NCBI GenBank assembly: GCA_025934395.1
Contig: JAICYC010000015.1
Span: 1 to 52,902, forward strand
Source of the DNA: Solirubrobacteraceae bacterium
Lineage (GTDB): Bacteria > Actinomycetota > Thermoleophilia > Solirubrobacterales > Solirubrobacteraceae
Length of the DNA: 52,902 bases
Reading direction: 5' to 3'
Positions 21,247-38,309 of this stretch are shown piece after piece (the first letter of the stretch is position 1; each line of letters begins with the position of its first letter). The notes beneath the pieces were generated by a model that saw only the letters and a program-made list of their open reading frames with translations, did no database searches and was not told where the DNA came from. The translations under genes were made by a program, and so were the position numbers.

Positions 21247-22004
21247 TGCAGGACGCCGAGCTGCTGCGGTTCTACGAAAGCGCGTACTCGCAGGACGCCG
21301 AGGCGTCCGTGCGGCACTCACGCTGGCGCGCGCTGAGCGCAGTTGGCAAGGCCGCGCACGTGATCGAGCTCTGTACACGCGCGGACCTGCGGCCGGACAG
21401 CGTCCTGGACGTCGGATGTGGCGACGGCGCGCTTCTCGGCGAGCTGCACAACCGCGGGTTCGGCGTCCGCCGCGCCGGCGTGGAGATCGCCGAGCAGGCC
21501 GTCGCCAGCGCGCGCGAACGCGATGGCGTCGATTCGGTCGACCGCTTCGACGGGCGCACCCTGCCGTTCCCCGACGAGGCGTTCGACCTCGGGATCCTCT
21601 CGCACGTGCTCGAGCACGTGCGAGAACCTACCGTCCTGCTCACCGAGGTCGCCCGCGTATGCCGAGCGGTCCTCGTCGAGGTTCCCCTCGAGGCCAACCT
21701 TTCAGCGGAACGGAGCGCCAAGCGACTGCAGGCGGTCGCCGTCGGCCACCTGCAGCGCTTCACGCGCGGGGACATGCGCGCGACGGTCTCCGCCTCGGGG
21801 CTGCGGATCGTCGCCGAGATGGAGGATCCGCTGCCACTCGCGGTGCACCGGTTCCACTCCGCGACCGCCCGCTCACGCGCCGTCGCAACCGTGCGATGGG
21901 CGCTGCGGGCCGGGATGCACCGTTCCGTGCCACCGCTCGCACGCCGCGTGTTCACGCTCCATTTCGCCTGCCTCTGCGTGCATCGCGACATCCGGCCGCA
22001 CTAG
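21246..22004 (+). CDS. Class I SAM-dependent methyltransferase
   Basis: 252 residues from the GTG at 21246 (VQDAELLRFYESAYSQD). A longer open frame upstream would run antisense through the divergent ligase gene and is rejected. Motif I VLDVGCGDGALLGELH (~58-73), the acidic residue of GVEIAEQAV, and LPFPDEAFDLGILSHVLEHV (~106-125), typical of UbiE/Methyltransf_11-like enzymes. The C-terminal segment has HLQRFTRGDMRATVSASGLR, common in sugar or lipid methyltransferases of polysaccharide loci. Acceptor unknown. Confidence 0.82.
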   Translation: MQDAELLRFYESAYSQDAEASVRHSRWRALSAVGKAAHVIELCTRADLRPDSVLDVGCGDGALLGELHNRGFGVRRAGVEIAEQAVASARERDGVDSVDRFDGRTLPFPDEAFDLGILSHVLEHVREPTVLLTEVARVCRAVLVEVPLEANLSAERSAKRLQAVAVGHLQRFTRGDMRATVSASGLRIVAEMEDPLPLAVHRFHSATARSRAVATVRWALRAGMHRSVPPLARRVFTLHFACLCVHRDIRPH

Positions 22005-22184
22005 CGCCCGATTGGACCTGGGGAACCCGGTCTGCAACGCCGCGGACAGATGATCGAACCCGCGCGCGACGCATCAAGAATGGGCAGGGGGGCGTCGATA
22101 GCACCAGTAGCTGAGTTGTGGTCGTGGGACTCGATCAGGTCCCTCGCGGGAGGTATGTAAGGACCGCGGCGTCCTACACGGCAC

Positions 22185-22272
22185 TGCTCTCGAAAAAGGC
22201 AAACCCGTCGCAAGGCGGGGACGCAAAGCCACGAGGCCGCGTTACGCGGTCTGTCGAGCTACCGAAGGAGCA
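22185..22272 (+). promoter_or_regulatory. Cyclic di-GMP-I (GEMM-I) riboswitch aptamer
   Basis: The core matches the GEMM-I consensus in order: GGCAAACC (22198-22205), a P2 hairpin with a GCAA tetraloop (CCCGTC-GCAA-GGCGGG), the invariant GGGACGCAAAGCC (22218-22230), a P3 hairpin (GGCCGCG-TTA-CGCGGTC) and ACCGAAGG (22261-22268). Aligned to the Vibrio Vc2 aptamer, the ligand-contact bases G20 (22198), A47 (first A of GCAAAGCC) and C92 (22262) are all kept; G rather than A at position 20 favours c-di-GMP over 3',3'-cGAMP. P1 can form from TGCTCT (22185-22190) with GGAGCA (22267-22272), covering part of the Shine-Dalgarno AAGGAG (22265-22270) 7 bases before the ATG. This suggests translational repression when ligand is bound (inference). 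Confidence 0.88.
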
Positions 22273-22277
22273 TGTGA

Positions 22278-23654
22278 ATGACGCTCAACGCGTCCCGACC
22301 GTTCGATGCCGGCCGCCGGCTCGTGCTCGCACTCTGTGCGGCTCTGGCGTGCAGCGCGTTCTCCGCTTTCACCCTCGCCGCGCCCGCCTCCGCCGAAACC
22401 TCTTCCTGCGCCCTTTACGCCTCGCCGGCCGGGAACAACGCGAACCCCGGATCCGCCACCGCGCCGCTGCGCACGATCTCTGCGCTCCTTGCTCGCCTGA
22501 GCGCCGGCCAGACCGGCTGCCTGGCCTCGGGGCAGACCTTCAACGAAGGCGTCAACATCCACAGCGGCGAATCCCACGGCGCCGAAGGCGCCCCCGTGAC
22601 GCTGACGTCCGTGGACCCTTCGACGCCGGCGCTGATCAACGGGAGGGTCGTCACGCACGCGGGTGCCGACTGGCTCACGTTCACTCACCTCAACTTCACG
22701 TTCAGCGAATACCTGCTGCCGAGCATCACGATCGGCTCGACGCACACCACGTGGACCTACGATGACGTCACGGCCCCCACGACGATCTGCTTCAACCTGA
22801 TCAACAGTTCGACCTGGGGTGTCGCTGTGAACACCGTGATCGAACACGATCGCATCCACGGCTGCGGTTCCCAGGAGACATTCCTCTGCAATCAGAACAT
22901 CCCGCTGTGTGAAACGCCGCCAAATGATGGTTTCTTCATCCACGCCATCTACATCGGAGGCGGGCGCAACACGATCATCCGCAACGACTACCTCTACAAC
23001 AACGCCGACCGCGCCGTCCAGATGCGGAGCGGCGCCGAAGGCGTGATCGTGGAACACAACATCATGGATGCGGACGGCGAGGGCGTGATCTTCGGCGACG
23101 GAGCGACCGGCGCAACGGTCCAGTGGAACATCATCACCGGCAGTCACAGCAAGTGCGGCGAACTCAGTGGCTGCTACGACTACGGCGCATCCGAATACAA
23201 CGCCGCCGGCTCGAACCTGTTCGCCCACAACGACGTGTACGGCAACCAGTGCGCGAACCCGGTGCCCGCGTGCTGGCCCAACGCCGGCAACATCGAGAAG
23301 ATGAGCCACGTCACGGTCGAAAAGAACGTCGAAGTGGCGCCCCTCTACGTTGACGCGGGTGCCGGCAACTACGCGCTCCAGGCCAGCTCGCCGGTGCTGG
23401 GGTACGGGCCCGACGCGGTCCAGCCCGAAGCCACCTCCGGCTCGGGCACCGTGACGGAAGTGCCTTCGCCGACACCGGTCACCGAATCGAGCGGGCACAC
23501 CAAGCACGGGGGATCGAAGAAGGGCGCCGCCCGGGTCGCGTCGAGCGTCAGGCGGCGGTCAGCTCCGAGGCGCACGTCGCACCACCGGCGCCGTCGGCAC
23601 CGCGGCCGCCACCACCATCACCACCACAAGCGGGCCCTGTCCCACCGCCACTGA
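22278..23654 (+). CDS. Secreted right-handed parallel beta-helix protein with His/Arg-rich tail
   Basis: 458 residues. Signal peptide LVLALCAALACSAFSAFTLA, cleavage near ASA|ET. A Cys-containing N-cap (CALYASPAGNNANPGSATAP) is followed by rungs of a parallel beta-helix (RNTIIRNDYLYNNADRAV, GVIVEHNIMDADGEGVIF, TVQWNIITGS), as in pectate-lyase-like surface proteins. The last ~55 residues are strongly basic with a run of six His (RHRGRHHHHHHKRALSHRH), fit for metal or polyanion binding. No membrane anchor is seen. Glu is encoded by GAA in 16 of 19 cases, unlike neighbouring genes. Translation is probably controlled by the c-di-GMP riboswitch just upstream. A paralogue lies at 26942-28600. Likely a polysaccharide-binding or -modifying surface protein; catalytic residues are not identifiable. 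Confidence 0.85.
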   Translation: MTLNASRPFDAGRRLVLALCAALACSAFSAFTLAAPASAETSSCALYASPAGNNANPGSATAPLRTISALLARLSAGQTGCLASGQTFNEGVNIHSGESHGAEGAPVTLTSVDPSTPALINGRVVTHAGADWLTFTHLNFTFSEYLLPSITIGSTHTTWTYDDVTAPTTICFNLINSSTWGVAVNTVIEHDRIHGCGSQETFLCNQNIPLCETPPNDGFFIHAIYIGGGRNTIIRNDYLYNNADRAVQMRSGAEGVIVEHNIMDADGEGVIFGDGATGATVQWNIITGSHSKCGELSGCYDYGASEYNAAGSNLFAHNDVYGNQCANPVPACWPNAGNIEKMSHVTVEKNVEVAPLYVDAGAGNYALQASSPVLGYGPDAVQPEATSGSGTVTEVPSPTPVTESSGHTKHGGSKKGAARVASSVRRRSAPRRTSHHRRRRHRGRHHHHHHKRALSHRH

Positions 23655-23685: not shown

Positions 23686-24354
23686 TCAGGGCGAGGCGTG
23701 CGGAGATGCATCCCCCGCCGGGCGCGTGAGCGCCGCGAACAGCAGCGCCAAGACCCGCCCCATCAGGTCGTCGGGTACGACATCCGCGTCGGCGAGCTTC
23801 TGGCGCGCCATACCGTCGGCGAGCGCGTCGACCACGACGGCGAGCTCCTCGGCGGGCATCGCGAGCTCCAGCTCGAACTCGCGTGCGCTGTCGGCGATCA
23901 GCCGCGTGAGCATCGCACGCGCCTCTGCGAAGCGCTCGGCGACCTGCGGCCGCACCTGCTCGTCGCGCACTCCGTAAGCCCAAAACTCCGTGAACAGGAG
24001 GAGCACGTCGGGCTCGCGCTCGATCATCGCCATCCACTGGCGCGCGCCACCCGCAGCGCGCTCGGCGACGGAGGCGCTCCGCGCGACCGCTTGCTCGATC
24101 TCGCGCGCATGCTCCTCGATCTCCCTTCGCATCAGCTCGAGGAACAGGTCCTCCTTGCCGTCGAAGTTGGAGTACAGGGCCCCCGTCGAGAATCCGGCCT
24201 CCGACGCGATCTCCTCGACGCTCGCGCCGTGGAACCCCGAGCGTGAGAACACCTCGCGCGCAGCGGTGAGCAGCTTTTCGCGCGTGTTCGCTCGGCTCTG
24301 CTCCCGCGTCAGGCGCTGGGCCTGCGGGCCCGGCCGGCTCGGCTCCCTCGTCAT
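23686..24354 (-). CDS. TetR/AcrR-family transcriptional regulator
   Basis: 222 residues from the ATG at 24354; a longer frame would swallow the divergent promoter. The N-terminal HTH reads TREKLLTAAREVFSRSGFHG, then ASVEEIASEAGFSTGALYSN and FDGKEDLFLELM, a textbook TetR recognition helix. The C-terminal ligand domain (~80-200) is helical. The gene is divergent from the R2-ferritin/SCP2 gene, and the shared 103-base region holds a palindrome suited to TetR binding, so it most likely represses that gene and itself. The ligand may be a lipid or acyl-CoA (inference from the partner). Confidence 0.9.
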   Translation of the reverse strand: MTREPSRPGPQAQRLTREQSRANTREKLLTAAREVFSRSGFHGASVEEIASEAGFSTGALYSNFDGKEDLFLELMRREIEEHAREIEQAVARSASVAERAAGGARQWMAMIEREPDVLLLFTEFWAYGVRDEQVRPQVAERFAEARAMLTRLIADSAREFELELAMPAEELAVVVDALADGMARQKLADADVVPDDLMGRVLALLFAALTRPAGDASPHASP

Positions 24355-24367
24355 CCCGACATCGTAC

Positions 24368-24397
24368 TTGACAGAGCAAACGCTATTTGGATAGTGT
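24368..24397 (+). promoter_or_regulatory. Promoter for the R2-ferritin/SCP2 gene
   Basis: A perfect -35 hexamer TTGACA (24368-24373) is followed after an 18-base spacer by a weak -10 (TAGTGT, 24392-24397), or ATAGTG after 17 bases. It lies about 60 bases before the ATG at 24458. The TetR palindrome overlaps the spacer and the -10, the expected layout for repression. Confidence 0.55.
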
Positions 24398-24398
24398 T
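24379..24398. promoter_or_regulatory. Putative TetR operator palindrome
   Basis: AACGCTATTTGGATAGTGTT is an imperfect inverted repeat. The outer eight bases AACGCTAT and the reverse complement of ATAGTGTT (AACACTAT) match at seven of eight positions. It lies midway between a divergent TetR gene and its likely target and overlaps the target's core promoter. Size and symmetry are typical of TetR operators. Confidence 0.65.
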
Positions 24399-24457
24399 CG
24401 TTATCCACATTATCCATCGCCGGACCGGGATCCCCCGGCGCCGATTGGAGCGAGACG

Positions 24458-25780
24458 ATGGCCGGGAGCGCGACCACAACGACCGCAGACGGGACCGCGA
24501 ACCTCGCGAGCCTGCCCGCCGACGCGATCTCATACGAGGACCTGTACGCGCGCTGGGAGCGCGGCAACTGGCGAGCGACGGAGTTGGACTTCAGCGAGGA
24601 CGCGAGGCAGTGGCAGGAGGACTTCACCGAGTTCGAGCGCCAGGCGGCGCAGTGGAACTACTGCCTGTTCTTCTGGGGTGAGGACGCGGTGGCGGACAAC
24701 CTCTCCCCCTACATCGACGCTGCCCCGCGGGAGGAGCAGAAGTACTTCCTGACGACGCAGCAGGTCGACGAGGCGCGCCATGCAGTGTTCTTCAAGCGCT
24801 TCATGCAGGAGGTGTGCGGGGTGGGCGACGGCACGATGGCCGGCGGCCTACAGGCGATCAAGCCGCAGCTGACCGTCGGCTTCCGCAAGATCTTCGACCG
24901 TCTCGACACGATGGCCGACGAGCTGCGGCGCGACCGCTCTCCGGCGAAGCTCGCGGCGGCGGTGACGCTCTATCACATCGTGATCGAGGCATCGCTCGCA
25001 CAACCGGGCCAGCACTTCATCTGCGGCTACCTGCAGGAGCGCGACAAGCTGCCGGCCTTCCGCGAGGGCATGGAGAACATCGCGGCCGACGAGCAGCGCC
25101 ACATCGGCTTCGGGGTGAAGCTGCTGGCGGACCTCAACCGGGAAGACCCGGTGCGTGTGCCAAAGGCGGTCGCCCGGCTGCTCGGCGAAGTCACGCCGTA
25201 CACCTCGCAGGTGCTGATGCCTCCGGGCTGGGACGAGCGCTACGTGACCGTCTTCGACGCGACGCTCGACGACGTCGGTGTCGAAGGCGTGACGTCCATG
25301 ACCACGAAGCTGCGCTCGGCAGGGCTGCCGGTCGAGTCGCTTCCCGGGCCCCCGGTGATTCCCCCGGGGCTCACGCCGCTCGAGCTCTCACAGCGCGGGC
25401 GCGCGCTGGCCAAGGCCGGGGTGATCGGAGTACGCGAAGGGCCCTCTGCGCGCGACCCCGAGACCGTCGCGCTGCTGTTCGACATGGTGCAGCGCTCCGT
25501 GAACCCCCAGCACGGCCTCACGCGCCCGACGACATACCAGTGGGACTTCACAGACCGCGACATCGAGAGCTGGCACCTCGTGGTGAACAACGGCTCCAGC
25601 CAGGTCGCGCGCGGAGCGGCGGCCTCGCCGGACCTGCGGCTCGAGCTCTCCTACCAGGACTGGGTCGACATCGTGGGCCAGCGTCTGGACCCGCTGCGCG
25701 CAGTGGCCACCCGGCGGCTGCGCCCCCGCGGAAACCCGCTCGCGCTCGCGCGCCTGCGGCGCGTATTCCTCACGGGCTGA
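24458..25780 (+). CDS. R2-like (ribonucleotide-reductase small-subunit fold) ferritin-type di-metal protein fused to SCP2 sterol-carrier domain
   Basis: 440 residues. The N-terminal ~260 form a ferritin-like four-helix bundle with a complete di-metal ligand set: Glu75 (FFWGEDAVAD), Glu105-x2-His108 (DEARHAV), Glu177 (VIEASL) and Glu212-x2-His215 (ADEQRHIGF). The C-terminal ~130 residues resemble the SCP2 lipid-binding fold (WDFTDRDIESWHLVVNNGSS, LELSYQDWVDIVGQRLDPL). This pairing suggests an oxygenase or desaturase acting on a lipid or acyl group held by SCP2, rather than nucleotide reduction (inference; no R1 partner is nearby). It is likely repressed by the divergent TetR regulator. Confidence 0.82.
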   Translation: MAGSATTTTADGTANLASLPADAISYEDLYARWERGNWRATELDFSEDARQWQEDFTEFERQAAQWNYCLFFWGEDAVADNLSPYIDAAPREEQKYFLTTQQVDEARHAVFFKRFMQEVCGVGDGTMAGGLQAIKPQLTVGFRKIFDRLDTMADELRRDRSPAKLAAAVTLYHIVIEASLAQPGQHFICGYLQERDKLPAFREGMENIAADEQRHIGFGVKLLADLNREDPVRVPKAVARLLGEVTPYTSQVLMPPGWDERYVTVFDATLDDVGVEGVTSMTTKLRSAGLPVESLPGPPVIPPGLTPLELSQRGRALAKAGVIGVREGPSARDPETVALLFDMVQRSVNPQHGLTRPTTYQWDFTDRDIESWHLVVNNGSSQVARGAAASPDLRLELSYQDWVDIVGQRLDPLRAVATRRLRPRGNPLALARLRRVFLTG

Positions 25781-25841: not shown

Positions 25842-26609
25842 CTACTCGAGCACGAGGAACGTCAGGCGCGCGTAGGGCGCGAGCCCGGGGAACCGCCGCA
25901 ACAGCGCGTCGTCGACCCTCGCCACGGCGCGCGCAAAGGGGCGCTGCAGGCGGCGCGGGACAAGGAGGTTGAGCGGCATCAGGGGGATGCTCAGCAACTC
26001 GACCTCCACGTGGCTGAAACGCTCGAAGATGCCGGCGCAGATCTGCCAGTCGGCGACGGTGAGCGGGTGCTCGTCGTCGGTGCGGGCGCCGGGGGTCAGG
26101 CGCCGCCCGAGCCGCAGCAGCGGGTTGGCGGCGAGCGGCTCGAGAAACACCGCCCGGCCCCCGGGCCGGAGCAGGCGGCGAAGCTCCCTCAACGCGACCG
26201 GCATGTCGAGGTGGTGGAGGATCGAATGACCGACGATCAGGTCGAACGAGTCGTCGGTGAAGTCGGTGTGGTGGGCGTCGGCCGCCTGGAAGTCGACGCG
26301 GTCGGCGTACCCGCCGCTCCGGGCTTTCTCACGGGCGCGCCCGATCTCCTCCTCGGAGATGTCGATCCCGGTGACGTGGACCGCTCCTCGCGCCAGCAGC
26401 GACTCCACGCCGATCCCGGGCCCGCAGCCGTACTGGAGGACCGCCTTTCCCCGCGGGTCGAACATCGACTCGACCTCGTCGTGGCGGTTGAACTCGCCGA
26501 TCGCGCGCCAGATGACCCGCCTCAGCAGCCGATATTTGCTCGCGCCCGATGTGCGGTTGTAGAACTCCCGCTCGTGCTCGACGCGCTGAGAAACACCGAG
26601 TTCTGCCAC
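25842..26609 (-). CDS. Class I SAM-dependent methyltransferase
   Basis: 255 residues. Motif I is VLQYGCGPGIGVESLLARG (~58-76; Tyr replaces the usual Asp/Glu before GCG). Then VTGIDISEEEIGRAREKA, DFQAADAHHTDFTDDSFDLI and HSILHHLDMPVALRELRRLL, with the RPGGRAVFLEPL loop. The N-terminal EREFYNRTSGASKYRLLRRV is usual in small-molecule and lipid methyltransferases. It stands alone on the minus strand. Its start is divergent from a beta-helix gene across a 332-base leader region. Acceptor unknown. Confidence 0.83.
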   Translation of the reverse strand: MAELGVSQRVEHEREFYNRTSGASKYRLLRRVIWRAIGEFNRHDEVESMFDPRGKAVLQYGCGPGIGVESLLARGAVHVTGIDISEEEIGRAREKARSGGYADRVDFQAADAHHTDFTDDSFDLIVGHSILHHLDMPVALRELRRLLRPGGRAVFLEPLAANPLLRLGRRLTPGARTDDEHPLTVADWQICAGIFERFSHVEVELLSIPLMPLNLLVPRRLQRPFARAVARVDDALLRRFPGLAPYARLTFLVLE

Positions 26610-26941
26610 CGGCCGGGACTATACAGTCAGGCCTCCGAGGGATTGGACGGGCCAATGACCGGGCGCACGACGGCCGTTCGGTCTCGCAGAAGACGTCCGT
26701 AGAGCCGCCCGACGCCTCCGCACCGAGCGCGTTCCCGCGCGGCGTGCGCCGGTGGGCCAGCCCCGCTTCGGGCCCGCCCGCAGGCGGCGCGCGCCACCCG
26801 CGAGCGCCACGCACGGGTGCGGAGCATCTAAGAATCGCTGCGTCACGCATATTTAGCCGAAACCTGGGCAAAGCTGCACAACTAGACTTCGCAATATGCG
26901 ACCGCCGACCCATCGGCGGTGTCTCGAACCTGGAGGGTTTC
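26610..26941. other. 332-base divergent intergenic region with leader RNA
   Basis: No gene is visible here. The left ~200 bases are GC-rich and unremarkable. The right ~100 bases are more AT-rich around 26828-26856 and contain a structured leader (separate entry) before the beta-helix gene. Both divergent promoters must lie within it; no consensus -35/-10 pair could be assigned. Confidence 0.5.
26846..26919 (+). promoter_or_regulatory. Structured 5' leader RNA (class not recognised)
   Basis: Two perfect 8-base-pair helices lie in tandem upstream of the GTG at 26942: CGCATATT (26846-26853) with AATATGCG (26893-26900), enclosing 39 bases including CCTGGGCAAAGC, and ACCGCCGA (26901-26908) with TCGGCGGT (26913-26920), closed by a CCCA loop. 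The second helix ends 11 bases before the Shine-Dalgarno GGAGG (26932-26936). It has a GGGCAAA string but lacks the GEMM-I core, so it is not a second c-di-GMP-I aptamer by eye. It may be a cis-regulatory RNA. Confidence 0.5.
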
Positions 26942-28600
26942 GTGCGACGTATCCGTCACGGAAGGCCGAGGCGGCCCGGCATGGCCGCGCTGCTTGGAAC
27001 GCTCTTGGTCGCCGGCATGGTAATGCCGGTGGCGGCGGAGCCTGCCGGCGCGACGGAAGCCTCTACGTCATCGGTGGCGCCGACCCCCCTCGCCGAACCC
27101 GCGCCGCTCTCGGCACCCGCACCCGGCACCTCGACCATGGCGTCCACGCTCGCCGGCGAAGGCGAATCCGCGGCGGGCGCGGCGGTGACCGTCGTCAAAC
27201 CTGCGGTGAGCAACCTCTCGGCGATCCCGGGGCCCGAATCGCTGACGGCCCGCTGGTCCGTGACAACCACCGAAAACCTGGCGGGATTCCGGGTCCGCTA
27301 CCGGCCCTCCGCCGCACCGCTGGCGCCGTGGAGCGCGCCGGTGGACCTCAAACCGGGCGTCCGCCGCTACCCGATCAGCGGCCTGACCGTCCAGCCCTAT
27401 CAGGTCCTCGTCCGCGCGCTCACCGTGGACGGCACGCTGGGCGGCGCGCAGATCGTCACCGGGGTGCCGCTGCCTCCCGAAAACGAAGTGCCGCTGCCTC
27501 CCGAAAACGAAGTGCCGCCGCCTCCCGAAAAACCGGTCGAAGAAGAAAAACCCAGGGCACCGAGCTGCTCGCGGTACGCGGCCAACGGCGGCAGCGACAT
27601 CAATTCCGGCACTGCGAGCGCGCCGTTCCGCACGCTCAAACGTCTGATCGTCTCCCTCGCCGCGGGACAGACAGGCTGCCTGCAATCGGGCCAGGCGTTC
27701 GACACCGAACCCGACAGCACCGGTCAGGGCTCGATCACGATCAGAGGCGGCGAAAGCCATGGCGAAGCCGGCGCCCCGGTGACGATCACGTCGACCGACC
27801 CCGCGAACCCCGCCGTGATCTCACACAGCCTCTCGCTCACCGGCGGCGCGGACTGGCTCACGTTCACGCACCTGAAGTTCGAATGGGCGTTGCCCGGGCA
27901 GTGCACCTGGAGTGCCCTGGCGGTTGCGAGCAGCTGCCCCGCGGAAAGCCACGTCCAGATCGCGGTCTCGTCCAGACACGCGAGCTTCACCTGGGACGAG
28001 ATCACGAGCAAGGACACGAACATCTGCATGAATCTCGTCAAATACAACGGCTACACGGCCACCTCGACGCTGATCGAACACGACGTCATCCACGATTGCG
28101 GAACGCCCGTGCGGGCGCCGGGCGAACCGGGCTACCACGTGAACGTCAACGAAGAACCGGGCTGGCACGAGCACGGCATCTACGACTACGCGAACCACAC
28201 GACGATACGCAACAACTACTTCTACAACGTCTCGCGGGCAGCTCTGCTGTTCTACCCGGAAGGCAACGGGGCGGTGGTGGAACACAACGTGATCGACCAC
28301 AACGGCGTAGGCGTGTGGCTGGCCGGCACCGCCAATGTCCTCGTGCGCAACAACATCATCACCAACGCCACCAGCCCCCGCAGATACGAGGACTACGGGG
28401 TCGGCAGCAACGGCCCGGGGCAGGGCAACGTGATCGAACACAACTGCATGTACGGCAACGTCTCGGGCAACTTCGGCGTCGAGAGCCTCGTCGAGCTGCT
28501 CGAAAACCTGCTCGACACGAATCCCCTGTACGTGAACTCGACGGTGCACGACTACGAACTCCTCGCGGGTTCGCCCTGCACCGACGAGGCGCCAAAGTAG
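26942..28600 (+). CDS. Secreted FN3 plus right-handed beta-helix protein
   Basis: 552 residues from the GTG at 26942, which has a Shine-Dalgarno GGAGG 5 bases upstream. Signal peptide with basic start (VRRIRHGRPRRPG) and hydrophobic core AALLGTLLVAGMVMPVAA. Then a Pro/Ser/Ala-rich stretch, an FN3 domain (~88-175: SLTARWSVTTTENLAGFRVR, VLVRALTVDG), a proline-rich spacer with three VPLPPENE-type repeats, and a parallel beta-helix (TTIRNNYFYNVSRAALLF, AVVEHNVIDHNGVGVWLAG, VLVRNNIITNA). The N-cap SCSRYAANGGSDINSGTASA and AAGQTGCLQSGQAF aligns with the protein at 22278-23654, so the two are paralogues. Glu is GAA in 28 of 35 cases. No anchor is seen; likely released or polysaccharide-bound. Confidence 0.85.
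   Translation: MRRIRHGRPRRPGMAALLGTLLVAGMVMPVAAEPAGATEASTSSVAPTPLAEPAPLSAPAPGTSTMASTLAGEGESAAGAAVTVVKPAVSNLSAIPGPESLTARWSVTTTENLAGFRVRYRPSAAPLAPWSAPVDLKPGVRRYPISGLTVQPYQVLVRALTVDGTLGGAQIVTGVPLPPENEVPLPPENEVPPPPEKPVEEEKPRAPSCSRYAANGGSDINSGTASAPFRTLKRLIVSLAAGQTGCLQSGQAFDTEPDSTGQGSITIRGGESHGEAGAPVTITSTDPANPAVISHSLSLTGGADWLTFTHLKFEWALPGQCTWSALAVASSCPAESHVQIAVSSRHASFTWDEITSKDTNICMNLVKYNGYTATSTLIEHDVIHDCGTPVRAPGEPGYHVNVNEEPGWHEHGIYDYANHTTIRNNYFYNVSRAALLFYPEGNGAVVEHNVIDHNGVGVWLAGTANVLVRNNIITNATSPRRYEDYGVGSNGPGQGNVIEHNCMYGNVSGNFGVESLVELLENLLDTNPLYVNSTVHDYELLAGSPCTDEAPK
27464..27535 (+). repeat. Three 24-bp tandem repeats encoding a proline-rich spacer
   Basis: Units begin at 27464, 27488 and 27512; the first two are identical and the third has diverged at its 3' end. 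Each encodes VPLPPENE or a variant, giving an in-frame spacer between the FN3 and beta-helix domains whose length could vary by slippage. Confidence 0.92.
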
Positions 28601-37062: not shown

Positions 37063-38309
37063 AGACGGACCACGTTCTCGGCCGGCGCAGCGCGCGTGAC
37101 GCCGCGAAGGTCCACCACGAGCCGCGCCCTCCGTGCGATCACCGAGTGGTCGACGTCGCGGTGCGCCGTGACGATCACCGCCACATCGCATGCGCCGATC
37201 GCGTCCTCCAGCTCGACGCTCGCGAGGCCGAACTCGTTCAGCCGCGGCACGTGCGGGTCGTGGTAGCTCACGTCCGCGCCCAGCTCGCGCAACAGCGAGA
37301 TGATCTTCAGCGCGGGCGACTCGCGCACGTCGCCGACACCCGGCTTGTAGGCGACCCCCGCGATCAGCACACGGGCGCCTTTGACCGCGAGCCCGCGCTC
37401 GTTCAACGCCCCCTGCACCTTGCTCACGCAGTGGTAGGGCATCTGCTGGTTGATCTTCCCCGCGAGCTCGATGAACTCCGTGGACATGTCGAACTCCCTC
37501 GCGCGCCAGCTCAGGTAGAACGGGTCGACGGGCAGGCAGTGGCCGCCCATGCCCGGGCCGGGGTCGAAGCGCATGAACCCGTACGGCTTGGTGGCTGCCG
37601 CGTCCACCACCTCCCACACGTCGATGCCCATGCGGTCGGTAAGCATCGCGAGCTCGTTGACGAGCGCGATGTTGACCGAGCGGAAGATGTTCTCGAGCAG
37701 CTTCGTCAGCTCCGCGGCCTCCGGACTCGAGACGCGGAGCACCTCGTCGCAGACGAGCGCGTACAGCTCGGAGGCGCGCTCGGCGCAGTCGTCGGTGAGG
37801 CCGCCGACCACCTTCGGGGTGTTGCGCAGCGTGTAGTCCGTCCGGCCCGGGTCGACGCGCTCCGGCGAGAAGGCGAGGTGGAAGTCGCGGCCCGCGGCGA
37901 GCCCCGACTCCTCGAGCAGCGGCGCGACCCGCTCGCGGGTCGTTCCGGGGTAGGTCGTCGACTCGAGCACGACGAGCTGGCCCGCCTGCAGCACCTCGCC
38001 GAGCGCGCGCGCGGACTCGATCAGGGGGCCGAGGTCCGGCTCGCGATTGCTCGTCAGCGGGGTGGGAACGCACACGAGGACCGCGTCGGCCTTCGCGAGG
38101 GGCGCGTAGCGCGAGCTCGCCTGGATGCGGTCTGCGACCGCCTGCAGCTGCTCGGAGGAGACGTCCTCGATGTAGGACTCGCCCGCCGCGATCGCGTCCA
38201 CCTTCGCGCTGTCGAGGTCGACCCCCAGCACGTCGCACCCCTCTTCGGCGAAGGCGATCGCCAGCGGCAGGCCGACGTAACCGAGGCCGATGACGCCGAC
38301 CGTCTTCAT
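37059..38309 (-). CDS. UDP-N-acetyl-hexosamine 6-dehydrogenase (WbpA/WecC-like nucleotide-sugar dehydrogenase)
   Basis: 416 residues from the ATG at 38309. MKTVGVIGLGYVGLPLAIAF (1-20), DVLGVDLDSAKVDAI, VCVPTPLTSNREPDL, ESTTYPGTTRE, FSPERVDPGR, AELTKLLENIFRSVNIALVN (active-site Lys), GFMRFDPGPGMGGHCLPVDP with the catalytic Cys, and LIAGVAYKPGVGDVRESPAL. The GHCLPVDP form is typical of UDP-GlcNAc/UDP-ManNAc dehydrogenases. It is a second, more canonical enzyme than the one at 31970-33238. ATGA overlap with the upstream Gmd paralogue and GTGA overlap with the downstream acyltransferase show tight coupling. Confidence 0.9.
   Translation of the reverse strand: MKTVGVIGLGYVGLPLAIAFAEEGCDVLGVDLDSAKVDAIAAGESYIEDVSSEQLQAVADRIQASSRYAPLAKADAVLVCVPTPLTSNREPDLGPLIESARALGEVLQAGQLVVLESTTYPGTTRERVAPLLEESGLAAGRDFHLAFSPERVDPGRTDYTLRNTPKVVGGLTDDCAERASELYALVCDEVLRVSSPEAAELTKLLENIFRSVNIALVNELAMLTDRMGIDVWEVVDAAATKPYGFMRFDPGPGMGGHCLPVDPFYLSWRAREFDMSTEFIELAGKINQQMPYHCVSKVQGALNERGLAVKGARVLIAGVAYKPGVGDVRESPALKIISLLRELGADVSYHDPHVPRLNEFGLASVELEDAIGACDVAVIVTAHRDVDHSVIARRARLVVDLRGVTRAAPAENVVRL

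What the first reader, a model, noticed from the sequence alone, without database searches (positions are those of the whole stretch)
22181..22280. c-di-GMP-I riboswitch controlling a secreted beta-helix protein in a polysaccharide locus
All core elements of GEMM-I are present with ligand-contact positions G20, A47 and C92 preserved, and the P1 3' strand covers the Shine-Dalgarno. This ties a secreted, His/Arg-tailed beta-helix protein to the second messenger that usually governs biofilm matrix. The layout predicts translation off at high c-di-GMP, so the protein may act when cells leave the matrix state. No diguanylate cyclase or phosphodiesterase gene is nearby.
Basis: partly seen in the sequence, partly recalled or inferred. 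Interest (0 to 1): 0.78.

Follow-up and report, generated by a model that had tools for sequence, protein, structure and literature searches.

The report
c-di-GMP riboswitch on a secreted lyase-like gene
An actinobacterium carries a genuine c-di-GMP-sensing RNA switch whose own stem overlaps the ribosome-binding site of a secreted, polysaccharide-lyase-like protein, so the protein should be made only when this biofilm signal is low; the switch itself belongs to a well-known class.

Summary
Confirmed. Window 22189-22267 (+) is a c-di-GMP-I (GEMM-I) aptamer: RF01051 70.4 bits (gathering 35), RF03167 69.7 (gathering 59), the only match in the genome. G20, A47 and C92 are G22198, A22225 and C22262. 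Rfam's best-E label, c-di-GMP-I-GGC, misfits: that consensus has G at position 47, the window A. The genome has 22 GGDEF and 11 EAL matches, none in the window. Extended P1 pairs 22182-22192 with 22263-22276, closing the 3' half of the Shine-Dalgarno and the spacer; no terminator was found. Likely mechanism: translational OFF at high c-di-GMP, as reported for Vc2. The target is one secreted beta-helix protein in an exopolysaccharide locus; a low-confidence model resembles polysaccharide lyases. The SD-in-P1 layout recurs at 47 of 146 aptamers found in 66 of 101 genomes of the same order, and in other phyla. Pairing with this protein family is rare (1 of 17 homologue loci scanned). Ligand, sign and enzyme activity are untested. 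Verdict: a solid new member of a known kind, moderately interesting for its target and for a riboswitch regulon of secreted proteins and prepilins in this order.

The parts
22189..22267 (+). c-di-GMP-I (GEMM-I) riboswitch aptamer
   Evidence: RF03167 69.7 bits, GA 59; RF01051 70.4 bits, GA 35, at 22188-22266
22182..22192 (+). 5' strand of extended P1 (CACUGCUCUCG), pairs with the 3' half of the Shine-Dalgarno and the spacer
   Evidence: predicted fold and duplex
22263..22276 (+). 3' strand of extended P1 (CGAAGGAGCAUGUG), holds the SD and the spacer; A22266, G22267 and U22273 bulge in the minimum-energy fold
   Evidence: predicted fold
22198..22198 (+). G20 equivalent
   Evidence: 27 nt before A47 as in Vc2; alignment
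22225..22225 (+). A47 equivalent (G in the RF03167 consensus)
   Evidence: alignment
22262..22262 (+). C92 equivalent, junction C before the P1 3' strand
   Evidence: structure line; inference
22210..22213 (+). GCAA (GNRA) tetraloop of P2
   Evidence: sequence and fold
22265..22270 (+). Shine-Dalgarno AAGGAG
   Evidence: sequence; 7 nt spacer to ATG 22278
22278..23654 (+). regulated gene: beta-helix protein, 458 aa, Sec-like N-terminus (by eye), His/Arg-rich C-terminus, lyase-like low-confidence model; a TetR-type ORF on the other strand (23686-24627) follows

Best explanation
A c-di-GMP-I riboswitch that works as a translational OFF switch. Shown by sequence and covariance: the aptamer, its c-di-GMP-type contact nucleotides, and a P1 stem whose 3' strand contains the Shine-Dalgarno. 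Inferred: when c-di-GMP is high it docks between P1 and P2, stabilises P1, and the ribosome cannot load on the mRNA of the single downstream gene. When c-di-GMP falls, P1 opens or the ribosome wins the race, and the secreted beta-helix protein is made. Inferred with less certainty: that protein is a polysaccharide lyase or depolymerase acting on the cell's own exopolysaccharide, so the switch would release or remodel matrix when cells leave the sessile state.
For: Aptamer. Contacts: A47 in 146 of 146 and G20 in 142 of 146 hits, the window's included (read by a motif pattern, not by alignment). Ligand supply: 22 GGDEF, 11 EAL, 2 PilZ; Asp at the 344-equivalent in 20 of 22 GGDEF, Ser in none, 2 unreadable. 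Platform: SD plus start at the aptamer's 3' end in 47 of 146 hits, against 0 to 8 of 138-146 at ten other offsets; an eleventh, +60, gives 21 of 145, a second platform. The window's P1 5' strand pairs UGCUCU with GGAGCA, matched by 4% of 200 shuffles of that strand; over 44 SD-in-P1 hits the mean helix score is 3.19 against 2.05 for shuffles and 1.61 for 5' strands of other hits. Cognate 5' x 3' strand duplexes average -10.34 kcal/mol against -9.47 (sd 0.22) when strands are swapped among 106 loci, beyond all 2000 permutations. No terminator-like site in 21950-22400. Target: beta-helix family; best fold match alginate lyase 6kfn, E 3.7e-4.
Against: The predicted ligand-free fold already pairs 22268-22270 (probability 0.58-1.00 in 21 combinations of ends; keeping 22265-22272 open costs about 6 kcal/mol), so the dynamic range is unknown; and the 5' half of the SD is loosely held even in that fold (A22265 0.25-0.46, A22266 0.02-0.07, G22267 0.38-0.67 paired). 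The window's duplex is better than only 79% of swaps, the median z of the swap test is -0.20, and 42 of 106 loci rank worse than the median swap; 6 of 44 SD-in-P1 hits have no helix of three or more pairs on the SD by the rule. Only 1 of 17 scanned homologue loci has the aptamer; the closest homologue (51% identity, L153) and the paralogue in this window (26549-28600) do not. The structure model is weak (mean pLDDT 48) and Pfam Beta_helix scores 25.8 against a cut-off of 25.9. No sigma-70-type promoter was found.
Confidence: 0.75

Rival explanations
1. The RNA is a c-di-GMP-I-GGC variant with altered ligand preference, as the Rfam best-E label suggests.
For: RF03167 scores 69.7 bits, over its cut-off of 59, and wins the clan competition.
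Against: The consensus G at position 47 is A in the window and A in 146 of 146 hits; RF01051 scores slightly higher in bits (70.4). What the GGC variant binds could not be looked up.
Confidence: 0.07
2. It senses 3',3'-cGAMP (GEMM-Ib).
For: Same scaffold; cGAMP riboswitches are close variants (passages of PMC7266159).
Against: G at position 20, not A; Asp rather than Ser at the selectivity site in 20 of 22 GGDEF. That A20 and Ser mark cGAMP signalling is recalled.
Confidence: 0.04
3. An ON switch: c-di-GMP raises expression, for example because P1 formation frees the SD from another pairing or stabilises the mRNA.
For: The sign is not measured; the ligand-free fold is already largely closed, and GEMM-I ON switches exist (pilM, passages of PMC9262584; Vc1, passages of PMC4744006).
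Against: The SD itself lies in a P1 strand here, and cognate P1 strands pair better than swapped ones across 106 loci.
Confidence: 0.13
4. The beta-helix protein is an adhesin or structural matrix protein, not an enzyme, so that its loss at high c-di-GMP does not serve dispersal.
For: Beta-helix folds also occur in adhesins (PfbA, 3zpp and 4mr0, among the matches); the basic tail could anchor it to anionic polymer.
Against: The best fold matches are lyases; an N-terminal stretch weakly matches pectate lyase PelN (20.1 bits against a cut-off of 740); H194, H222 and Y225 are invariant and R192 nearly so in 12 aligned sequences.
Confidence: 0.4

Closest known systems
Vc2, c-di-GMP-I riboswitch of V. 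cholerae tfoY
   Same: Same aptamer class and contact residues; described as a translational OFF switch in which P1 stability is the key (passages of PMC9262584; PMC7371385).
   [quoted passage not shown] paper not read); here the SD lies in the P1 strand itself.
Rfam RF03167 c-di-GMP-I-GGC
   Same: Overall score over the cut-off, full length.
   Different: Window has A, not G, at position 47.
RbmB, V. cholerae matrix polysaccharide lyase
   Same: Appears among the fold matches of the model (9ozd, 9ozl, ranks 45-46); RbmB digests matrix polysaccharide and is needed for dispersal (passages of PMC7768729).
   Different: E 0.29, 7-10% identity; no enzymatic evidence here; the passages read mention no riboswitch on rbmB.

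Membership tests
c-di-GMP-I riboswitch (RF01051) | covariance score over the gathering threshold | tested here: met
   70.4 bits, cut-off 35
c-di-GMP-I riboswitch (RF01051) | G20, A47, C92 contact nucleotides | tested here: met
   22198, 22225, 22262 (numbering; C92 placed by inference)
c-di-GMP-I riboswitch (RF01051) | P1-P2-P3 junction with GNRA loop on P2 | tested here: met
   loop GCAA 22210-22213. The tetraloop receptor in P3 was not tested
c-di-GMP-I riboswitch (RF01051) | binds c-di-GMP | not testable with these tools
   needs in-line probing or ITC
c-di-GMP-I-GGC (RF03167) | covariance score over the gathering threshold | tested here: met
   69.7 bits, cut-off 59
c-di-GMP-I-GGC (RF03167) | G at position 47 (reading the name GGC as positions 20/47/92 is inferred from the consensus and recalled) | tested here: not met
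   consensus GACGCGAA, window GACGCAAA
3',3'-cGAMP riboswitch (GEMM-Ib) | A at position 20 (recalled) | tested here: not met
   G22198
translational OFF switch by SD masking (Vc2-like) | SD inside a helix that the ligand stabilises | tested here: inconclusive
   SD lies in the P1 3' strand; 22268-22270 paired, A22266 and half of G22267 open in the predicted fold; ligand stabilisation not testable
translational OFF switch by SD masking (Vc2-like) | expression falls with ligand | not testable with these tools
   needs reporter
beta-helix polysaccharide lyase | right-handed beta-helix fold | tested here: inconclusive
   Pfam 25.8 against 25.9; homologue L018 38.1; model pLDDT 48; best match 6kfn
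beta-helix polysaccharide lyase | lyase activity | not testable with these tools
   needs purified protein

The most novel reading that the evidence does not exclude
Solirubrobacterales run a large, lineage-wide c-di-GMP riboswitch regulon in which RNA, by hiding the SD inside P1, directly gates a set of secreted glycan-active and surface proteins, with a second platform for prepilins; in this species the one aptamer found has been placed on a self-matrix lyase encoded inside the exopolysaccharide locus, forming a minimal dispersal switch.
Probability: 0.35. Interest if true: 0.6.

Novelty: new member of a known kind. Interest (0 to 1): 0.42.

Why it matters
It gives one compact test case (a single gene, SD inside P1, one aptamer found in the genome) for direct c-di-GMP control of a secreted, possibly matrix-active protein. 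The relatives show that c-di-GMP-I aptamers are common in an actinobacterial order for which a search of the open paper library for 'c-di-GMP' with 'Solirubrobacter' gave 2 papers, neither about riboswitches by title and abstract start. It also shows that Rfam's c-di-GMP-I-GGC label can fall on RNAs that carry the canonical A47.

Tried and rejected
Led nowhere: the search for related loci with the protein (106 pattern matches, none confirmed); PDB sequence search (five matches, best E 0.27, four of them on the basic tail); papers on RF03167 (0 papers), the three papers that hold 'c-di-GMP-I-GGC' (passages seen; none says what it binds), and the original variant paper, which is not held.

Rejected: transcription attenuation (no terminator-like site in 21950-22400); the snoZ248 match at 37661-37782 (28.2 bits against a cut-off of 120) as chance; conservation of the riboswitch-protein pairing as a general rule (1 of 17 homologue loci).

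Counts and rows: SD-in-P1 hits are 44 of 146 by the rule and 47 of 146 by the slightly wider rule. One search used stricter filters and scored 40 candidates per genome, so weak aptamers may be missing. Loci L165, L167 and L178 were left out of the Rfam scan for size, and L166, L168-L172 and L179-L181 were not scanned. One search clustered 141 downstream proteins (4 of 146 hits had no ORF, 1 ORF was under 50 aa); the ORF caller is my own and missed some prepilins (compare). Pfam was run on 20 of the 37 representatives prepared, chosen by hand. In one search redundant loci and loci without enough upstream sequence were dropped (106 kept); relatedness is not modelled there nor, where 81 matches are 70 distinct. 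One search lists exactly 80 stretches and may be capped. My notebook checkpoint says 16 of 16 GGDEF; the right counts are 15 by pattern and 5 more read by eye.

Full report
What is there. A scan of the whole window against Rfam gives one strong hit: c-di-GMP-I-GGC (RF03167) at 22189-22267 +, 69.7 bits against a cut-off of 59, E 1.6e-14, full length. The parent family RF01051 scores 70.4 bits against a cut-off of 35 at 22188-22266. Each model finds one place in the window's 3.0 Mb assembly (91% complete) and rings in 0 of 14 control genomes.

Which class. With the Vc2 numbering, in which G20 and A47 are 27 nt apart (G20/A47 in Vc2, G12/A39 in Vc1, G11/A38 in Bc1; passages of PMC4744006, and PMC11218506), the window has G22198 and A22225; the junction C22262 is the C92 equivalent by the structure line. 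The RF03167 consensus reads GACGCGAA where the window reads GACGCAAA: the G47 that, as I read the name, defines the GGC variant is absent. Over all 146 hits, read by a motif pattern, A47 is kept in 146 and G20 in 142 (the four exceptions are one 62.9-bit hit with A and three hits under 36 bits). The GGC label therefore reflects similarity outside the ligand pocket.

Is the ligand made. The genome has 22 GGDEF, 11 EAL and 2 PilZ matches, none on the window's contig; HD-GYP was not searched. Of the 22 GGDEF domains, 15 were read by a pattern and 5 by eye, all with Asp at the residue that is Ser in Hypr (cGAMP) enzymes (recalled); 2 are too degenerate to read. Eighteen have an intact GG(D/E)EF motif. 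c-di-GMP is the expected messenger.

How it should work. The Shine-Dalgarno AAGGAG (22265-22270) sits 7 nt before the ATG at 22278 and is part of the 3' strand of P1. The predicted fold pairs 22182-22192 with 22263-22276. There is no terminator-like site in 21950-22400, and a TetR-type ORF on the other strand follows the gene (23686-24627), so one gene is probably controlled. P1 stability is described as the key to ligand binding and regulation in Vc2, a translational OFF switch (passages of PMC9262584; PMC7371385); Cd1, another member, is described as lacking P1. OFF at high c-di-GMP follows by analogy. Two things complicate it (21 combinations of ends): without ligand 22268-22270 are already paired with probability 0.58-1.00, and keeping 22265-22272 open costs about 6 kcal/mol; and the 5' half of the SD is loosely held (A22265 0.25-0.46, A22266 0.02-0.07, G22267 0.38-0.67). 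The ON state may be kinetic; this is not shown.

Is the layout more than chance. Over 101 genomes (the window's own and 100 relatives), 66 have at least one hit at E <= 0.001 and 47 one over the RF03167 cut-off, 146 places in all. An SD followed by a start codon and at least 50 open codons lies at the aptamer's 3' end in 47 of 146, in 39 of 66 genomes; at ten control offsets it is 0 to 8 of 138-146, and at +60 it is 21 of 145. In 18 of those 21 a prepilin motif is encoded within 400 nt, so this is a second platform. Over the 44 SD-in-P1 hits, the best helix between the 5' strand and the SD scores 3.19 on average, against 2.05 for shuffles and 1.61 for 5' strands of other hits; the window scores 5.3, matched by 4% of 200 shuffles; 6 of 44 score zero. 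A scan of the 84,980-species collection for an aptamer core followed by CCGAAGGAG and ATG, which left the 5' strand free, listed 80 stretches (possibly capped), among them Solirubrobacterales, Actinoplanes and relatives, Rubrobacteraceae, Chloroflexi, Rokubacteria, Myxococcota, Paenibacillus and Clostridium. In the 81 matches (70 distinct), a four-base complement of GGAG lies in the 16 nt before the core in 26, against 11.6 (sd 2.8) from shuffles. Swapping 5' strands among 106 non-redundant loci weakens the duplex: cognate mean -10.34, permuted mean -9.47 (sd 0.22), best of 2000 permutations -10.27 kcal/mol. This is a group effect: the median z is only -0.20, 42 of 106 loci rank worse than the median swap, and the window's duplex beats 79% of swaps.

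What it controls. The product (458 aa, P0001) has a Sec-like N-terminus (by eye), a beta-helix core (PF13229 25.8 bits against 25.9; 12 aligned sequences) and a His/Arg tail. Homologues L155, L162 and L174 have other basic tails. AlphaFold2 with the window's two paralogues gave a weak model (mean pLDDT 48, 76 residues at 70-90); its only match at E <= 0.001 is an alginate lyase (6kfn, E 3.7e-4, 14% identity), followed by PL6 lyases and chondroitinase B, and far down by RbmB of V. cholerae (E 0.29) and the adhesin PfbA (E 0.13). RbmB digests matrix polysaccharide and is needed for dispersal (passages of PMC7768729). The neighbourhood is an exopolysaccharide locus: Wzz/kinase, two Wzy_C proteins, CpsB/CapC, Bac_transf, glycosyltransferases and a deacetylase. 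A matrix lyase made when c-di-GMP is low is the most coherent reading, but activity is a guess.

How general is the pairing. 21 of 101 genomes, the window's own included, have a match to the protein at E <= 0.001. Of 17 homologue loci scanned (one of them the window's own paralogue), one (L155, genome G052, another genus) has the aptamer upstream. The closest homologue (L153, 51%) and the paralogue (26549-28600, 35% identity) do not. A third beta-helix protein under an aptamer is L036 (with Big_7). So aptamers sit before this kind of protein more than once, but rarely. Of 20 representative downstream proteins scanned, hits over the cut-off include GHL15 (2), cellulase/GH39, Peptidase_S8, CAP, Laminin_G_3 (2), Ice_binding, beta-helix (2) and an HD domain; 7 have no match at E <= 0.01 and 2 only matches below the cut-off. 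Fifteen of 141 clustered downstream proteins form a prepilin cluster.

Taxonomy. Seven of eight unnamed relatives tested share an identical 600-base stretch with named records (names): four Solirubrobacterales or Solirubrobacteraceae, Svornostia abyssi, and two with broader names (Actinomycetes, Actinobacteria). Svornostia, in the tool's same-family group, is Thermoleophilia, Solirubrobacterales. The window is from that order, by inference.

Verdict. The RNA is real and ordinary in kind; the SD-in-P1 layout, its single lyase-like target inside a polysaccharide locus and the wide use in the order make it moderately interesting.

Noticed in passing
L001-L142 (hits): The order carries many c-di-GMP-I aptamers, up to 6 per genome (146 places in 66 of 101 genomes), before secreted proteins (glycoside hydrolase-like, ice-binding, subtilase, CAP, LamG) and prepilins.
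   Followed up: partly
offset +60 class, e.g. L049, L071, L114, L122: A second expression platform with the SD about 60 nt after the aptamer: 21 of 145, 18 of them with a prepilin motif within 400 nt and 9 with a GGUG/CACC P1; mechanism not worked out.
   Followed up: partly
L090 (G041:C1:3813901 and 3814783): Two aptamers of the same printed sequence 0.9 kb apart, each before its own prepilin gene.
   Followed up: no
aptamers such as L028, L036, L056: The P2 internal loop AAA is ACC or ACA in 33 of 146 hits; none of the 31 tabulated cases keeps the usual GGA/GGG opposite, which looks like a co-varying alternative motif.
   Followed up: partly
L061 (G096:C182:10781-10868): An aptamer before an HD-domain (HD_5) gene, possibly a c-di-GMP phosphodiesterase and feedback; the GYP motif was not checked.
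   Followed up: no
window 26549-28600 +: A second beta-helix protein (35% identical, long N-terminal extension) without an aptamer.
   Followed up: partly
L175:217-377 +: A c-di-AMP (ydaO) riboswitch, 68.8 bits, about 1 kb before a beta-helix homologue.
   Followed up: no
window 22160-22175 +: A short hairpin AGGAC-CGCGGC-GUCCU, seen by eye, just upstream of the aptamer; role unknown.
   Followed up: no
L182-L261: 32 of 80 listed stretches are from Actinoplanes and related genera, with the aptamer and CCGAAGGAG directly before an ATG but a different P1 5' strand (such as GGUACCCG or GGCACCGAG).
   Followed up: no
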